From: an uncultured Rubrobacteraceae bacterium
GTDB lineage: Bacteria; Actinomycetota; Rubrobacteria; Rubrobacterales; Rubrobacteraceae
Reading direction: 5' to 3'
Length of the DNA: 18,329 bases
Assembly: GCA_902806105.1 (NCBI GenBank)
Contig: CADCVI010000005.1
Coordinates: forward strand, 1-18,329
A program made the translations under genes and the position numbers. Under the pieces are notes generated by a model, which was not told the DNA's origin, did no database searches, and worked only from the letters and a program-made list of their open reading frames with translations. Positions 767-11,643 of this stretch are shown here, piece after piece (position 1 is the stretch's first letter; each line of letters begins with the position of its first letter).

Positions 767-1348
767 CTAGAGGTTGGCGGAGATCACGGGCATGAGCTCG
801 CGGAAGGTGCGGCCCGTGGCGTTCTCGCCGATGGCGTGCATCTTCCACTCCCCGCCCTGGCGGTAGACCTTCGCCATGACCTGGGCGGTGTGGTTGCCGC
901 GCCCGGAGAGGTTGTAACGGGCCACCTCGTTCCCCGTCCCCTCGTCCAGGATGCGGCAGAAGGCGTTCTCGATCTTGTCGAAGGTCTGCCCCGTAAAAGA
1001 GTTGACGACGAACACCAGCGCCCGCACGCCCTCCGGGACGCGGTCGAGGTCGACGACGATCTGCTCGTCGTCCCCCTCGCCGGCGCCCGTGAGGTTGTCG
1101 CCGGTGTGTACGATGGAGCCGTCCTTGCTGTAGAGCTGGCCGTAGTAGATCGTGTCGACCGCGTGGCCCGCCTCGTCGAACATGACGCAGGATGCGTCCA
1201 GGTCCACGGAGCCGCCACCACCCAGGAGGCCCCGCAAACCGCCGGCCTTCGCCACGTCCCATCCGAGGCCCATCCGGACGCGTGAGAGATGTCCCCCCGC
1301 CTCCTTCTCCAGCGAGATCCTCTGGCCCTTCTCAAGGTTGATCGCCAC
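767..1348 (-). CDS. terZ: TerD-family protein, TerZ-like
   Basis: This is a 193-aa protein with the full TerD signature: MGLGWD near residue 26, DLDASC with acidic calcium-binding residues, and [13 protein letters not shown] near residue 82. It resembles TerZ rather than TerD/E because it has the glycine insert after GLGWD (GGLRGLLGGGG), the YYGQLYSKDGS segment and SFTGQTF...ENAFCRI. TerD-domain proteins are cytosolic calcium-binding proteins in stress-response loci (tellurite, phage, colicin and oxidative stress); the biochemical role is unsettled. The start is GTG at 1348, behind a strong GGGGAGG ribosome binding site. It lies 48 nt after terA and 17 nt before the phosphoribosyltransferase, so it is almost certainly in the same transcript. 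The length is normal and no key residue is missing. The TerZ label is by resemblance and less certain than the family. Confidence 0.9.
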   Translation of the reverse strand: MAINLEKGQRISLEKEAGGHLSRVRMGLGWDVAKAGGLRGLLGGGGSVDLDASCVMFDEAGHAVDTIYYGQLYSKDGSIVHTGDNLTGAGEGDDEQIVVDLDRVPEGVRALVFVVNSFTGQTFDKIENAFCRILDEGTGNEVARYNLSGRGNHTAQVMAKVYRQGGEWKMHAIGENATGRTFRELMPVISANL

Positions 1349-1396
1349 GATCCTACCTCCCCTTCTCGTTCTCCACGGTTCCCGACCGGTACTCTA

Positions 1397-2587
1397 CTAC
1401 TTCGAACCCGCCGTCCATCGGAAGCCGAACCCGTACCGCTTGTCCGCGTCCTTGTGGCCGCGGAAGTACTGCTCTTCCTTCGTGATCTCCACGGAGCTTC
1501 CCGAGGCGCGAACGGTGCAGATCGCGCAGAAGTTCCGGCCCCGGTCCGGGCTGCCGAGCTGGATGAAGATCTGGTCGCCGGACCCGTCCGTGATCGCCAT
1601 GCGTCCGCCCACGCTCGTGAAGTCGCTTGCCCCGCCGTAGATGAACGCGAAGACCATCACGAGGTCTATCTCCTGCGCCCGGTGCAGGTACAGGTTCTCC
1701 CCGTCCGTCGCCACCCCGCTCCGGTCGTCCTTGTCCAGAAAGATGAACGGGGAGCGCTCCTTCGCCCCGAAGTTGCCGCCGAGCGCCTGTATGACGCCCG
1801 CGTCCCCGTTCTTGAGCCGGTACATGCATCCGAGGTCGAGGTCCGGCGCGCCGCCCCCGCCGAAGCCGAAGAACCCGCCGCCGCGCCCGCCCCCGGAGGC
1901 GTCCCAGTTCAGGTTGATGTGTATCGGCCGGTCCCCGCCGCGCTTGTTCAGGTCCACGACCTGCTTGTCGCCCTTCTTGTCCAGCGTGATCTTGCTGATG
2001 TTGACCTTCGGGGCCGGGGGCGCGGCCGGTGGGGGAGGGGGCGCCGGTGGAGCCTCTTGCGCCACCTCTTCGCCGCCGAAGTGCGCGAGGAGGGCGGAGA
2101 GGCCGCCGTTGAAGCCCTGGCCCACGGCGGCGAAGCGCCAGACGTCCTTCCGGTAGATCTCCCCTACGATGACCGCCTTCTCCTGGGAGAAGTCCGCCCC
2201 CGTGAACGGGAACCGGGCCACCTCGGAGCCGCCCGAGAGCAGCCTCAGGTGCCCGCGGGAGACCTGCGACATCGTGCCCGCGCCGTCGAGGGTCGCGGTG
2301 AAGACGAGCTTCTGTACCCCCTGCGGCAGCTCGGAGAGACGCACCTCGAAGGACTCGGCGTCGCCGTTTCGGGGTCCGGTCTGGCGGATCTCACCCTGCG
2401 GGCTCGCCTTCTGGTTGAAGAAGACGAAGTAGCGGTCGTCGGAGAGCTTGCCGTCCGCGTCCACCCCGAAGCAGCTTAAATCGAAGCTCGGCGAGCCCGA
2501 GGCTTGCAGGTCGAGGCCGACGGTCAGATCGGTGGATGGCGTCAGGTCGGCCAGCTTCGATTTCTGGCCGCGGGTGAACTCCTTCAT
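1397..2587 (-). CDS. terA: TerA-like tandem TerD-domain protein
   Basis: This 396-aa protein has two diverged TerD-like domains. The first, residues 1-165, has DLTVGLDLQASG, a FVFFNQKASP strand and ends AAVGQGFNGGLSALLAHFG as in TerD. A proline/alanine-rich linker (about residues 174-195) joins it to the second domain (about 196-396), which holds a glycine-rich FGFGGGG loop, DLDLGC, PFIFLDKDDRSG, VFAFIYGG and a terminal YGFGFRW. The second half matches the TerA family (COG4110), and the length is close to E. coli TerA. The canonical GDNxTGxGxGDDE calcium loop is absent from domain 1, where the corresponding stretch reads RQTGPRNGDAES, so this copy may have lost part of its metal site. The start is ATG at 2587, 25 nt after terD; no strong ribosome binding site is visible, which suggests coupled translation. 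It is likely a scaffold or partner for the other Ter proteins, by family inference. Confidence 0.88.
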   Translation of the reverse strand: MKEFTRGQKSKLADLTPSTDLTVGLDLQASGSPSFDLSCFGVDADGKLSDDRYFVFFNQKASPQGEIRQTGPRNGDAESFEVRLSELPQGVQKLVFTATLDGAGTMSQVSRGHLRLLSGGSEVARFPFTGADFSQEKAVIVGEIYRKDVWRFAAVGQGFNGGLSALLAHFGGEEVAQEAPPAPPPPPAAPPAPKVNISKITLDKKGDKQVVDLNKRGGDRPIHINLNWDASGGGRGGGFFGFGGGGAPDLDLGCMYRLKNGDAGVIQALGGNFGAKERSPFIFLDKDDRSGVATDGENLYLHRAQEIDLVMVFAFIYGGASDFTSVGGRMAITDGSGDQIFIQLGSPDRGRNFCAICTVRASGSSVEITKEEQYFRGHKDADKRYGFGFRWTAGSK

Positions 2588-2612
2588 AAGCTAAGGCCGC
2601 ACTTTCTCTCGC

Positions 2613-3191
2613 TCAACCGACGCTGACCCCGTAGTTTCGGGCCATCGGCCCGAGCCCCCCGGAAAAACCCTGCCCGACGGCCCGGAACTTCCACTCGCCC
2701 CTGTTGCGGTAGACCTCGCCGAAGAGCATCGCCGTCTCCGTCGAGGCGTCCTCGGAGAGGTCGTAGCGCACGATCTCCCGGTTGGTCTCGCCGTTGACGA
2801 CCCGTATGAAGGCCCCTCCGACCTGTCCGAAGTTCTGGCGGCGGGCGTCGCCCTCGTGGATCGTGACGCCGAAGACGAGCTTCGCCACGTCCTGGGGCAC
2901 GCTCTGTAGGTCCACCTTGACCTGCTCGTCGTCGCCCTCGCCCTCGCCGGTGAGGTTGTCCCCGGTGTGCTCCACCGAGCCGTCGGCCGAGCGGAGGTTG
3001 TTGTAGAAGATAAAGTCCGAGTCGCTCCGGACCTTGTTGCCCTCGTCGAGCAGGAAGACCGAGGCGTCGAGGTCGTAGTCCGCGCCGTCGGTGGCGCGCA
3101 CGTCCCACCCGAGCCCCACGACGACCCTCCTCAGGTTCGGGTCCTCCTTGCTCAGCGAGACGTTGCCGCCCTTGCTAAGAGAGATCGCCAC
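2613..3191 (-). CDS. terD: TerD-family calcium-binding stress protein (second paralogue)
   Basis: This 192-aa protein covers the entire TerD domain: [13 protein letters not shown] at the N-terminus, [47 protein letters not shown] and [16 protein letters not shown]. It closely resembles E. coli TerD and TerE and the neighbouring paralogue at 3292-3867, which points to a local duplication. The acidic residues of both calcium sites are present. The start is GTG at 3191, with GGAGGAAGG a few bases upstream. A strong terminator hairpin lies in the 100-nt gap between the two paralogues, and I see no promoter in the roughly 40 nt after it. This copy and the genes below are therefore probably expressed by read-through at a lower level than the first copy. 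TerD proteins are cytoplasmic and linked to tellurite and general stress tolerance; a direct activity is not established. Confidence 0.93.
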
Positions 3192-3229
3192 AGCTACCTT
3201 CCTCCTTCACCCATCCGGATTCGTGTTGC

Positions 3230-3274
3230 GGGAAAAAGAAGGCCCGGCCGGCGCTAGACTGCGCCGGCCGGGCC
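3230..3274 (-). terminator. Intrinsic terminator between the two terD genes
   Basis: A perfect 14-bp GC stem (arms 3241-3254 and 3261-3274) closes a 6-nt loop. On the minus strand it is followed directly by TTCTTTTTCCC (3230-3240), a textbook rho-independent terminator. It begins about 17 nt after the stop of the first terD. The next gene starts only about 40 nt beyond the T tract, so this is most simply a partial terminator inside the operon. Confidence 0.9.
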
Positions 3275-3291
3275 ACTGAGGAGTGCTACCT

Positions 3292-3867
3292 CTAGGCGTT
3301 CACGCCGTAGTTGCGAGCCATCGGACCGAGGCCGCCCGCGAAGCCCTGTCCGACCGCCTTGAACTTCCACTCGCCCTTGTTGCGGTAGACCTCGCCGAAG
3401 AGCATCGCCGTCTCCGTCGAGGCGTCCTCGGAGAGGTCGTAGCGCGCGATCTCGGAGTTGTCCGAGCCGTTTATCACGCGGATAAAGGCGTTTGAGACCA
3501 TCCCGAAGTTCTGGCGGCGGGAGTCGGCCTCGTGGATCGTGACGCCCACGGAGAGCTTCTGGACGTCCTGCGGGACGGTATCCAGGTTGACCTTGATCTG
3601 CTCGTCGTCGCCCTCGCCCGCGCCCGTGGTGTTGTCGCCGAGGTGCTCGACGGAGCCGTCGGAGCTCTTCTTGTTGTTGTAGAAGATAAAGTCCGAGTCG
3701 TTTCTTACCTTCTCGTCCTCCTTGAGCAGGAAGACCGAGGCGTCGAGGTCGAAGTCCTGTCCGTCGGTGGACCTCGTGTCCCAGCCGAGTCCTATTACGA
3801 CGTCCTTCAGCCCCGGAGCCTCCTTGCTTAGCGAGACGTTACCGCCCTTTGAGAGCGAGACTGCCAT
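3292..3867 (-). CDS. terD: TerD/TerE-family calcium-binding stress protein (first paralogue)
   Basis: This 191-aa protein is nearly co-linear with E. coli Ter[61 protein letters not shown], a central [14 protein letters not shown] and [16 protein letters not shown], ending in a short C-terminal segment. Two calcium sites rich in Asp and Glu are expected from known TerD structures and their residues are visible here. The start is ATG at 3867 with AAGGGGAA seven bases upstream. It is the first gene of the run and has its own promoter (TATAAT at 3903-3908), giving a leader of about 30 nt. A terminator follows directly, so this copy should be the most abundant product of the ter locus. The TerD versus TerE assignment is not decidable from sequence alone. 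Confidence 0.94.
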
Positions 3868-3902
3868 GTGGTTCCCCTTTCGATCGAAGCCCAGCGCTAT
3901 GG

Positions 3903-3908
3903 ATTATA
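3903..3908 (-). promoter_or_regulatory. Promoter -10 box for the ter operon
   Basis: A perfect TATAAT reads on the minus strand about 36 nt upstream of the terD start, in an AT-rich island within GC-rich surroundings. No good -35 hexamer is visible at 16-18 nt spacing; the sequence there reads GGATGC. The promoter may therefore depend on an activator or an alternative sigma factor. The latter is inference. Confidence 0.6.
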
Positions 3909-3952
3909 CAAGACCACTTGTTAATGCATCCCACGAAAGAGGGGATCTGACC

Positions 3953-4708
3953 CTATCCGAGACCCCCGTAATAGGCGAGCGTCTCGTAATCGAACGAGAC
4001 GCTCCCGTCCCTCCCATGCCTCCGAAAGACGTCCTCCAGCTCGCGCATCATGGCATCATGGCCCGCCTGCCCCTCGTCGGGGACGTAGGACGACGAGAGG
4101 AGCCTGCCCCGCAGCCCGTCGAGATCGAACGCCTGTGAGTGGCGAAACGCGCGCCTTCTAAAGTTCTCCGGCCCGAAGAAGGCCCGGACGCCCTCCTCGC
4201 GGTCGAAGTCCTCGTACTCTTCGGTCCTGTAACGCCGTATCAGGTCCTCGTAGGCTTCCATGAAGGCCGACGCATCGTGCCTGAGCTCGTTCCACAGGAG
4301 CATCACGCACCCGCCGGGACGCCGCAGGATGCGCGAGAACTCGGCGCGCGTGCCCCGAACGTCGAACCAGTGGAAGGCGTGGCCGACCACGACGAGGTCG
4401 ACGCTGCCGTCTTCCAGCGTCGTCCCCTCGGCCGTCCCGACGACGCTCGTGAAGAGCGGGTAGCCCGCGAGGTGGCGTTCCCCCGCCCCGCGCATCTCGT
4501 CGTTCGGCTCGATCCCGTAGACGCGGTTCCCGTTCTCCAGAAACAGCTCAGATAGAAGCCCCGTCCCCGAGGCGACGTCCGCGACCACGGAGCCTTTCGT
4601 GAACCCGCACTCCGCTCGCAGCACTTCCAGAATCTCCCGGGGGTAGCCGGGGCGGTACCTCGCGTAGTTTGCGGCCCTCGTCGAGAACCTAGCCTTCGGA
4701 TCGGTCAT
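3953..4708 (-). CDS. Class I SAM-dependent methyltransferase (Methyltransferase_11 type)
   Basis: This 251-aa protein is a small-molecule type methyltransferase. Motif I is VVADVASGTG (residues 41-50), with the acidic ribose-binding residue in GIEPND (65-70). The post-motif region VDLVVVGHAFHWFD is the usual motif II area with the family's AFHWFD signature, followed by RILRRPGG. The N-terminal ARFSTRAANYARYRPGYP is typical of this clade (UbiE/COQ5-like and trans-aconitate methyltransferase relatives). The start is ATG at 4708 with only a weak purine stretch upstream. It lies between terC and terD and ends 45 nt before the terD -10 box, so it is read in the same direction but is not in the same operon unless there is read-through. 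The substrate is unknown. Methyltransferases near tellurite genes sometimes volatilise tellurium, as TehB does, but nothing here shows that. Confidence 0.9.
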   Translation of the reverse strand: MTDPKARFSTRAANYARYRPGYPREILEVLRAECGFTKGSVVADVASGTGLLSELFLENGNRVYGIEPNDEMRGAGERHLAGYPLFTSVVGTAEGTTLEDGSVDLVVVGHAFHWFDVRGTRAEFSRILRRPGGCVMLLWNELRHDASAFMEAYEDLIRRYRTEEYEDFDREEGVRAFFGPENFRRRAFRHSQAFDLDGLRGRLLSSSYVPDEGQAGHDAMMRELEDVFRRHGRDGSVSFDYETLAYYGGLG

Positions 4709-4823
4709 GCGTCAGCCCCTGAGCCAGCATCTTCGTCCACCGCGGAGAAGTTCCATGGCTCAAGATGATCTCACACCTACGCCGCGCCGCGAAAGCTCGC
4801 GCCCCGAAGCGCCGCCCGCATGA

Positions 4824-4865
4824 CGAAGGCCCCCGGACCGATGATGCCGGTCCCGGGGGCCTTCG
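4824..4865 (-). terminator. Terminator-like hairpin after terC
   Basis: A stem of about 17 bp with one bulged base closes a 6-nt loop. Arms start at GAAGGCCCCCGG (4825) and end at CCGGGGGCCTTC (4864). It starts 24 nt after the terC stop on the minus strand. There is no T tract after it, so termination would be rho-assisted or the hairpin may act mainly as a 3' stabiliser. Confidence 0.6.
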
Positions 4866-4889
4866 AAACTTCGCCTGCGCGGCGTTCCT

Positions 4890-5579
4890 CTAGGCGGTCT
4901 TGTTCTGCGTGCTGCGGTTGACGAAGAAGGCGATGGCCGTAAAGATCGCGGCGGCGGCGATGGCGATGACCTGGTGCAAGCCCTCCGTCGACTCCGCGAC
5001 TGCCTGCGCGATGCCGAGCTTGTCGTCGAACATCAGCTCGACCGCGACGTAGACGAGCAGCGCTGCCCCCGCATAGACGATGATGGGGAAGCGGTTCATC
5101 AGGTTGCTCAAGATAGTGGCGCCGTAGATGATGATCGGGATCGTCAGCGCGATGCCGACGGCTACGAGCCAGACCCGCGGCTCGCCCTCCGGGTTGCGCG
5201 AGATGGCCACCAGCGCGATGACGTTGTCCAGCGACATGACCGCGTCGGCGATGGCGATGATGCGCACGGACTGCCACAGCCCCGACCCTGCCTTCACGTT
5301 CGCCTCCTCGTCTTCTCCCCGGACGAGCTGCCAGGAGATGTAGATCAGGAGCAGCCCGCCGATAAGCTGGAGCAGCGGCAGCTGAACGAGGAACGAGACT
5401 ATAAAGACGAAGATGACGCGAAGCCCGATCGCCGCCGCGACGCCGAGCTGAATGGCCCTGCGGCGCACGTTGCCCTGCAAGCCGCGCACCGCCAGCGCGA
5501 TCACCACGGCGTTATCGCCGGAGAGAATGAGATCTATTAACAGAACACCTAGAAACGCGCCTAAAAGCTCGAGGCTCAA
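4890..5579 (-). CDS. TerC-family integral membrane protein, YjbE type
   Basis: This 229-aa polytopic membrane protein has about seven hydrophobic segments. It carries the two TerC hallmark motifs with buried aspartates, DLILSGDNAVVIAL (residues 16-29) and DAVMSLDNVIALVA in the middle, arranged as an internal repeat. The family (TIGR03717-like) takes part in manganese export and in metal loading of exported proteins in Bacillus; tellurite resistance is the historic phenotype. The start is TTG at 5579, with GGGGGGAA about eight bases upstream; the protein then reads MSLELLGAFLGVLLIDLILS, the usual N-terminus of the family. The short soluble loop EDEEANVKAGSG follows transmembrane segment 3. It has its own TATAAT at 5651-5656 and a hairpin downstream, so it is probably monocistronic although next to the ter genes. 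Confidence in the family is high, but the transported ion is inference. Confidence 0.92.
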   Translation of the reverse strand: MSLELLGAFLGVLLIDLILSGDNAVVIALAVRGLQGNVRRRAIQLGVAAAIGLRVIFVFIVSFLVQLPLLQLIGGLLLIYISWQLVRGEDEEANVKAGSGLWQSVRIIAIADAVMSLDNVIALVAISRNPEGEPRVWLVAVGIALTIPIIIYGATILSNLMNRFPIIVYAGAALLVYVAVELMFDDKLGIAQAVAESTEGLHQVIAIAAAAIFTAIAFFVNRSTQNKTA

Positions 5580-7764: not shown

Positions 7765-7907
7765 TTAGAGAAGCAGCAAGAGTTTTGGGCTTGGGTCTGC
7801 GCGGTGTGGTCCTCGCGGCGGCTTGCTAAAGTGGCTCCTGTTTGGAGAGAGTCGCGGGCAGGGCTGTCGCGGGACCTCGTGTAGAGAAGGAAGGAGCCCG
7901 AAACTAT

Positions 7908-9506
<1,599 letters not shown>

Positions 9507-9553
9507 ACAGGAACAGCGATAACCCGCTCCGCCATCATCCAACCCCGCGGCCA

Positions 9554-9584
9554 GGCCGGCGGCTCCACCCGGAGACCGCCGGCC
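9554..9584 (+). terminator. GC hairpin downstream of aceB
   Basis: Nine base pairs (9554-9562 with 9576-9584) plus four more (CTCC with GGAG, one bulged A) close an ACCC loop. No T tract follows, so it may be a weak terminator or a stability element between aceB and aceA. Confidence 0.5.
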
Positions 9585-9667
9585 CCCGCCCTGCTGCCCC
9601 GGAGCGTGGGCCACGTACCCACGCCCCACGCAGCCCCCCGACTACCGGGTGGGTTGCGTGTTGTAAG

Positions 9668-9694
9668 CACATACGTTTAGACTGAACGTATGTG
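9668..9694. promoter_or_regulatory. Perfect 10-bp-arm inverted repeat before aceA, candidate operator
   Basis: CACATACGTT (9668-9677) and AACGTATGTG (9685-9694) are exact inverted repeats around a 7-nt centre, ending 42 nt before the aceA ATG. The element is AT-rich compared with its surroundings and has no T tract, which suits a dimeric repressor or activator site better than a terminator. Its size is typical of TetR- or GntR-type operators. The cognate regulator is unknown, and no second copy was seen upstream of aceB. Confidence 0.65.
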
Positions 9695-9736
9695 TAACAG
9701 GGTGGTAGTGAACATCTCGATGGAAGGAGCGGTTGG

Positions 9737-11071
<1,335 letters not shown>

Positions 11072-11140: not shown

Positions 11141-11229
11141 GGTTGGACTCGTGCGGAGGATACCGGTCCCCGCCGCGGTAGAGGTTTGGGTGCGTTATTC
11201 TGAAAGAGTCGTACTGGGAGAGGAGAGGT

Positions 11230-11643
11230 TTGATCCAACCGCCGCAACACCTGGTGCTGATCTTCGACGGGGCCTGACACTTCTGAACGCGGTCGGCGCG
11301 CTGGGTTCGAGCGCTCGACCGAGACCGCCGCGTGACGGTGGTGCCTTACCAGAAGGATGGCGTCCCGGCCTCCGCCGGATTGAACGTCGAGGACTGCGAG
11401 AGGGCCGCGTGGGCCTACGAGCCCGGGGACGAGCCCGGCGAGCCGCGCCGCCGGTGGCGGGCGGCGGCCGCGATCAACGCGTCTCTCGCCGTGGCACTCG
11501 GGACCGGGCTGCCGCTCTCCTTCTATGGGTTGCCCGGAGTTCGGTTTCTCCAGGACGTCGCCTACCAGATCGTCGCCGACAACCGCGGCAAGATCCCCGG
11601 CGACAAGCCCTACTGCAAGCAGTACCCCGAAGAGTGCCGTTGA
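11230..11643 (+). CDS. DCC-family thiol-disulfide oxidoreductase with two in-frame TGA codons (candidate UxxU selenoprotein)
   Basis: Read through two TGA codons, this frame gives 137 residues of the DCC family (DUF393, motif DxxCxxC). The N-terminus is MIQPPQHLVLIFDGA, then TGA (codon 16, 11275-11277), His-Phe, TGA (codon 19, 11284-11286), then TRSARWVRALDRDRRVTVVP. The C-terminal half, GLPGVRFLQDVAYQIVADNR followed by GKIPGDKPYC, is the usual DCC ending. Both TGAs fall exactly where the family has its two cysteines. The frame is otherwise free of stops up to 11641. The TTG start has AGGAGAGG just upstream. Other cysteines in the protein use TGC, so TGA is specific to the active site. A hairpin resembling a bacterial SECIS follows (11291-11320). 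I infer insertion of two selenocysteines; the alternatives are TGA read as cysteine or a young pseudogene. DCC proteins are thioredoxin-fold-like and probably act on disulfides; partners are unknown. It has its own terminator and sits between aceA and a convergent hydrolase. Confidence 0.72.
11291..11320 (+). promoter_or_regulatory. Candidate bacterial SECIS hairpin
   Basis: The RNA can fold with GGUCG/CGACC as lower stem (11291-11295 with 11316-11320) and GCGCU/AGCGC as upper stem (11298-11302 with 11310-11314), separated by a small asymmetric internal loop with a single U on the 3' side. The apical loop is GGGUUCG (11303-11309). The loop starts 16 nt after the second TGA and 25 nt after the first, inside the 16-37 nt range described for bacterial SECIS, and it begins with G as required. 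One element could serve both codons. SelB binding is inferred. Confidence 0.6.

What the first reader, a model, noticed from the sequence alone, without database searches (positions are those of the whole stretch)
11230..11643. DCC/DUF393 protein with TGA at both DxxCxxC cysteines: candidate UxxU selenoprotein
Seen: a 137-codon frame with good TTG start and ribosome site, interrupted only by TGA at codons 16 and 19, spaced exactly as the two cysteines of the DCC motif (FDG-A-TGA-H-F-TGA-TR). The flanking sequence is intact and family-like on both sides, and the remaining cysteines use TGC. Known: DCC proteins carry DxxCxxC; selenocysteine often replaces a redox cysteine; UxxU pairs are rare. 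Inferred: both TGAs are decoded as selenocysteine, giving a diselenide-capable active site. Gene callers would give a truncated 103-aa ORF starting at GTG 11332 and miss the active site.
Basis: partly seen in the sequence, partly recalled or inferred. Interest (0 to 1): 0.93.

Follow-up and report, generated by a model that had tools for sequence, protein, structure and literature searches.

The report
Double-selenocysteine DCC redox protein in Rubrobacter
A small redox-protein gene from a Rubrobacter-like bacterium has the UGA stop codon at both of its active-site cysteine positions, as do most of its close relatives, so the cell likely builds two selenium atoms side by side into a protein that databases mostly record in a shortened form.

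Summary
Confirmed. The frame 11230-11643 reads as an intact DCC1-like (PF04134) protein with in-frame TGA exactly at the two DxxCxxC cysteines. Homologues occur in 12 of 39 Rubrobacteraceae genomes: 10 have TGA at both positions, 2 have TGA then TGC, none has two Cys codons. In a 396-genome phylum sample the 11 other homologues found use TGC/TGT at both. A start codon with a ribosome site stands 11 codons before FDG in 13 of 13. A conserved stem-loop follows the second TGA, in a stretch of low synonymous divergence. R. marinus has selA-selB-selC with UCA anticodon and a selD with its own TGA. The window's own genome is not held, so its machinery is inferred. Of 90 database homologues 87 start after the motif. 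Paper searches pairing selenoprotein or selenocysteine with the family's names returned none. Best reading: an unreported UxxU selenoprotein family, probably a selenol/diselenide oxidoreductase. Selenium incorporation and activity are untested.

The parts
11216..11229 (+). ribosome binding site (purine-rich stretch GGGAGAGGAGAGG) before the start codon
   Evidence: anti-SD duplex -8.4 kcal/mol; -5.7 to -11.0 in the 12 relatives
11230..11643 (+). DCC1-like (PF04134) gene, 137 codons plus terminal TGA, predicted UxxU selenoprotein
11230..11232 (+). TTG start codon, 11 codons before FDG; a start codon (ATG, GTG or TTG) stands here in 13 of 13 sequences
11275..11277 (+). first in-frame TGA (codon 16), predicted Sec; TGA in 13 of 13 Rubrobacteraceae sequences
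11284..11286 (+). second in-frame TGA (codon 19), predicted Sec; TGA in 11 of 13, TGC in 2 of 13
11290..11321 (+). predicted SECIS stem-loop; 7-nt loop GGGTTCG at 11303-11309, 25 nt after the first and 16 nt after the second TGA
   Evidence: low synonymous divergence here
11332..11643 (+). truncated 103-aa ORF that an annotation pipeline would call (GTG start, weak ribosome site -3.0)
   Evidence: a 103-aa counterpart is deposited for R. marinus (P0007)
11641..11643 (+). terminal stop TGA; TAA, TAG or TGA in relatives

Best explanation
The gene is a DCC-family (PF04134) redox protein whose two active-site cysteine codons are both TGA, and both are likely read as selenocysteine, which would give a UxxU active site. 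Shown: the codons, their conservation, the start codon kept upstream, the stem-loop kept downstream, and the Sec machinery in relatives. Inferred: SelB carrying Sec-tRNA binds the single stem-loop just after the second UGA, whose loop lies 25 nt from the first and 16 nt from the second UGA, and so serves both codons. Inferred from the predicted model: the two selenols sit at the start of the first helix and cycle between a reduced pair and a diselenide, making a selenol-disulfide oxidoreductase that would resist over-oxidation. Its partner and substrate are unknown.
For: Both TGAs fall on the motif cysteines. Of 39 Rubrobacteraceae genomes 12 carry the gene: 10 UxxU, 2 UxxC, 0 CxxC. A PF04134 search of the same 39 at E up to 1e-5 found 10 matches, every one this gene with TGA, and no Cys paralogue. 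The 11 homologues outside the family found in a 396-genome phylum sample are CxxC. Start codon at the same place in 13 of 13, with ribosome site. Mean synonymous divergence of residues 19-32 is 0.268, below all 90 overlapping windows further downstream (0.306 to 0.532). Stem-loop pairing 93.1% of cells, covariation score reached by 1 of 500 shuffles, slid versions 29.9-47.2%. R. marinus selA-selB-selC side by side, tRNA anticodon UCA. selD over the cut-off in 9 of 12 gene-bearing genomes, 10 copies, each with one TGA; FdhA over the cut-off in 4 of 12, each with one TGA. Predicted fold pLDDT 95.8, motif at the start of helix 17-29.
Against: No genome is held for the window, so its own machinery is unseen. 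G038 (UxxC) shows no selA, selB, selC or selD over the cut-offs, and G003 only selA; G003 is a MAG and G038 is in many contigs, completeness not told. Carrying selC does not separate genomes with the gene (10 of 12) from those without (19 of 27). A hairpin within the published bacterial SECIS limits is not specific here: 211 of 334 other TGAs in the window pass the same test. One of 13 sequences (L032) has no G in the first two loop positions, and in L024-L027 the lowest-energy fold is in another register. In the shuffle control the number of pairs with double changes (260 of 500 as high) and of pair types (339 of 500) is not unusual. In 1 of 7 pairs dN exceeds dS in the 14 codons before the first TGA. 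Two relatives have a strong ribosome site before a later internal start (L028, L033). No direct protein evidence.
Confidence: 0.91

Rival explanations
1. The UGAs are recoded with SelB but by cysteine, through a Cys-charged tRNA with a UCA anticodon or a Sec-like body, giving an ordinary CxxC protein.
For: Such recoding with a non-canonical tRNA-Cys has been described in other bacteria (recalled, not read here). Sequence cannot tell Sec from Cys at UGA.
Against: The tRNA-Sec search of three relatives found one gene over the cut-off in two of them and none in the third. ARAGORN on the 8 loci fetched gave only Sec, Ser and Leu. selD, the selenophosphate donor, is present with its own TGA. Not every tRNA of these genomes was examined.
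Confidence: 0.04
2. The gene is a decaying pseudogene, or only the 103-aa fragment after the TGAs is made.
For: TGA is a stop in the standard code, and annotation gives the fragment. L028 and L033 have a strong ribosome site before a later internal start.
Against: The same TGAs and no other inner stops in the 12 relatives; dN below dS after the TGAs in 7 of 7 pairs, and before them in 6 of 7; start codon and ribosome site kept upstream of the TGAs in 13 of 13, and stronger than that of the first internal start in all 13; the fragment, from residue 35 on, lacks the first strand and the first helix of the predicted fold.
Confidence: 0.02
3. TGA is reassigned to a common amino acid (such as Trp) in this lineage.
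For: The frame is open through TGA.
Against: TGA ends this very gene in the window and 2 of 13 other window ORFs checked. The TGAs align with Cys, not Trp, in homologues. Canonical Sec genes are present in relatives.
Confidence: 0.005
4. Only the first UGA is read as Sec efficiently, and the second mainly terminates or is a tolerated relic.
For: The second position is TGC in one supported clade (L026, L027). The second UGA is at the lower spacing limit (16 nt).
Against: The second UGA is kept in 11 of 13 sequences, on every other branch of the family. Termination there would abolish the product.
Confidence: 0.02

Closest known systems
DCC1-like / DUF393 thiol-disulfide oxidoreductase family (PF04134; YuxK-like)
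   Same: Near whole-length Pfam match, DG-x-C/U-x-x-C/U motif; model with the motif between a strand and a helix
   Different: Both motif cysteines are TGA; the 11 other Actinomycetota homologues found have Cys
UxxU Prx-like selenoproteins (Prx-like 2; Prx-like thiol:disulfide oxidoreductase PF00578; SelL)
   Same: Two Sec in a UxxU redox motif (passages of PMC2398784 and PMC13188914; SelL's diselenide seen only as a reference title)
   Different: Different protein family; no Prx domain in the Pfam scan
MerA-like UxxU metal-binding selenoprotein (NF041115) and FmdB-family UxxU (TIGR02605)
   Same: Two Sec spaced as UxxU (table passages of PMC13188914)
   Different: Unrelated families; neither appears in the NCBIfam scan
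SelD and FdhA selenoproteins of the same genomes
   Same: One in-frame TGA followed by a hairpin with a GGU-type loop
   Different: One Sec, different proteins; here one hairpin must serve two UGAs

Membership tests
DCC1-like family PF04134 | Score over Pfam's gathering cut-off | tested here: met
   54.4 bits against 27.8 with C for U
DCC1-like family PF04134 | DxxCxxC motif | tested here: inconclusive
   Motif in register, but both Cys positions are TGA (Sec if recoded)
Bacterial selenoprotein | In-frame TGA aligned with Cys of homologues | tested here: met
   11 of 11 homologues found outside Rubrobacteraceae in the phylum sample have TGC/TGT at both positions
Bacterial selenoprotein | TGA conserved in other species | tested here: met
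   12 of 12 Rubrobacteraceae homologues have at least one TGA, 10 have two
Bacterial selenoprotein | SECIS-type hairpin: spacing 16-37 nt, loop 3-9 nt, G in first two loop positions, -7.5 kcal/mol or lower | tested here: met
   Window: 7-nt loop GGGTTCG, spacing 25 and 16 nt, about -20 kcal/mol. A G-bearing hairpin at the homologous place in 12 of 13, spacing counted from 14 nt. The test alone is weak: 211 of 334 control TGAs pass
Bacterial selenoprotein | selA, selB, selC, selD in the host | tested here: inconclusive
   Complete in R. marinus; window genome not held
Bacterial selenoprotein | Selenium in the protein | not testable with these tools
   needs 75Se labelling or mass spectrometry
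Prx-like UxxU selenoproteins (PF00578) | AhpC-TSA/Prx domain | tested here: not met
   Pfam scan lists only PF04134 and a weak TraF match

The most novel reading that the evidence does not exclude
The DCC/DUF393 family contains an unrecognised diselenide branch confined, as far as seen, to Rubrobacteraceae: both catalytic cysteines are selenocysteine, placed by one hairpin that serves two UGA codons 9 nt apart. A sister clade with UxxC gives a natural pair for asking what the second selenium does.
Probability: 0.87. Interest if true: 0.76.

Novelty: new variant of a known kind. Interest (0 to 1): 0.74.

Why it matters
It would add a protein family without a reported Sec member (in what I could search) to the bacterial selenoproteome, in a lineage known for radiation and desiccation tolerance (recalled). 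It joins the few UxxU families named in the reviews, and it has natural UxxC and CxxC relatives, so the value of a diselenide over a selenenylsulfide or disulfide can be tested directly. A single hairpin apparently serves two closely spaced UGAs. It also exposes an annotation loss: 87 of 90 database homologues lack the active site.

Tried and rejected
SECIS by single-sequence test: rejected as evidence on its own, because 211 of 334 other TGAs in the window pass the same limits. I rely on conservation instead.

Co-occurrence with selC inside the family: uninformative (10 of 12 with the gene, 19 of 27 without).

Conserved gene neighbourhood as a clue to function: not the same across clades. The glyoxylate-shunt genes lie upstream in the window, R. 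marinus, L056 and L062 (isocitrate lyase alone in the shorter L063); L057 and L058 have a UbiA prenyltransferase next door; L059 has an HTTM protein, with a homologue near the gene in L064. A crude ORF caller was used.

Rfam and ARAGORN on the window: nothing.

Tree: 28 of the 39 rows of A4 were used; 11 truncated database proteins were left out. UxxC is one clade (98/91). The tree does not rule out a single origin of Sec and does not show it.

Other tRNAs able to read UGA: not searched for beyond the tRNA-Sec model.

Full report
Observation. The frame at 11230-11643 is as described: TTG start after a purine-rich ribosome site, TGA at codons 16 and 19, then open to codon 138, which is TGA too. 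With C put for U the protein scores 54.4 bits against PF04134 DCC1-like, cut-off 27.8. No tRNA or Rfam family at threshold lies in the window.

Relatives. A scan of genome contigs returned 5 loci: three Rubrobacter (the complete R. marinus chromosome and two MAGs), all with TGA at both positions in nearly identical DNA, and two distant ones with Cys. A search of the 39 held Rubrobacteraceae genomes found the gene in 12: 10 with two TGAs, and two (L026, L027) with TGA then TGC. The terminal stop is TGA, TAA or TAG among the 13 sequences. A PF04134 search of the same 39 genomes gave 10 matches at E up to 1e-5, all the same gene with TGA, and no Cys paralogue; two of the 12 fell under its threshold. 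The class holds only the same 39 genomes. In a phylum sample of 396 genomes, with up to 10 candidates scored in each and E up to 1e-15, there were 23 matches: these 12 and 11 others, and those 11 have TGC or TGT at both positions. The tree does not rule out one gain of Sec; the two UxxC rows form one clade (98/91).

Translation through the TGAs. A start codon stands exactly 11 codons before FDG in 13 of 13 sequences, with ATG, GTG or TTG used, and an anti-SD energy of -5.7 to -11.0. The first internal start codon scores 0 to -6.1, weaker than the upstream start in each sequence; two later internal starts do have strong sites (L028, L033). dN is below dS after the TGAs in 7 of 7 pairs tested, and in the 14 codons before them in 6 of 7. 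Of 90 database homologues 87 begin after the motif, at positions 23-37; the three that span it are two CxxC proteins and P0004, with R then C. Their DNA was not seen, except where a locus here covers the same gene. R. marinus's deposited protein is the 103-aa fragment.

Stem-loop. RNAalifold on 13 sequences gives a hairpin at 11290-11321 in the window. Counted on 12 distinct rows, 93.1% of cells pair against 29.9-47.2% for slid partners, a comparison that leans towards the structure because it was derived from these rows. The covariation score 0.164 was reached by 1 of 500 shuffles, while the number of pairs with double changes was not unusual (260 of 500). The upper stem slips register in L028, L031 and L032, and the lowest-energy fold is in another register in L024-L027. 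A G-bearing loop at the homologous place can be formed in 12 of 13, not in L032, with spacing counted from 14 nt. Against the published bacterial limits (passage of PMC13188914) the window hairpin with its 7-nt loop fits for both UGAs. This fit alone means little: 211 of 334 other TGAs in the window pass. A stronger sign is synonymous divergence: residues 19-32 have a mean of 0.268, against 0.306 to 0.532 (median 0.461) in 90 overlapping windows further downstream; codons before the motif were not in that comparison, and one 8-codon bin near residue 106 is also low (0.294).

Machinery. In R. marinus, selA (404.8 bits to PF03841), selB and a tRNA-Sec with UCA anticodon lie side by side. Over their cut-offs, tRNA-Sec is found in 10 of the 12 gene-bearing genomes, selB in 9 of 12, selD in 9 of 12. 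SelA was sought in six genomes of these and found in four, including G003. G038 alone shows none of the four. All 10 selD copies over the cut-off carry one TGA; the KAGUASKF-type context was printed for 8 of the 9 loci fetched, the script's pattern having picked an unrelated frame in the ninth (L072). FdhA over the cut-off in four genomes also carries one TGA. So in-frame UGA in known selenoproteins is an established trait of these hosts. The window's own genome is not held; its gene order partly matches R. marinus around the gene, so I infer the same.

Novelty. Searches of the open-access library for selenoprotein or selenocysteine with DUF393, DCC family, DCC1-like and YuxK returned no paper, nor did DUF393 with thiol-disulfide oxidoreductase. 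Two reviews of prokaryotic selenoproteins and the deep-Sep paper, searched by term and seen in passages only, do not contain the word DCC; PF04134 and DUF393 were sought in PMC13188914 and are absent. UxxU is named for Prx-like, MerA-like and FmdB proteins. R. xylanophilus is listed in a table of PMC1794560 with 5 and SelD. NCBIfam lists no matching selenoprotein model. Subscription papers and supplements were not searched, so earlier notice cannot be excluded. I file it as a DCC protein by Pfam score and a predicted selenoprotein, a new variant of a known kind.

Noticed in passing
L026:1525 and L027:1525 (G038, G033): A sister clade keeps the first TGA but has TGC at the second position (UxxC), a natural comparison for the diselenide.
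   Followed up: yes
P0004 (metagenome protein, 137 aa): Motif reads FDGARGFC: Arg at the first position (CGA would be one transition from TGA), Cys at the second.
   Followed up: no
G036:C109:716-1633 and G036:C188:18212-19117: Two selD copies over the cut-off in one genome, each with one in-frame TGA.
   Followed up: no
L055:263-352 (G019): A tRNA that passes the Rfam tRNA-Sec cut-off (57.1 bits) but that ARAGORN calls tRNA-Ser with anticodon TGA.
   Followed up: partly
L059:5047-5967: An HTTM-domain protein lies directly upstream of the DCC gene; a homologue lies near the gene in L064. In L004 (Omnitrophota) the DCC frame runs on for about 600 residues, not scanned.
   Followed up: partly
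L057:6390-7283 (homologue in L058): A UbiA-family prenyltransferase next to the DCC gene in two genomes, a possible quinone link.
   Followed up: partly
window 767-5579: Tellurium-resistance-type block on the minus strand: a TerD protein (767-1348), further ORFs of similar look (1397-3867, not scanned) and a TerC protein (4890-5579).
   Followed up: partly
window 7842-11071: Malate synthase and isocitrate lyase (glyoxylate shunt) directly upstream of the selenoprotein gene; both also lie upstream of it in R. marinus, L056 and L062.
   Followed up: partly
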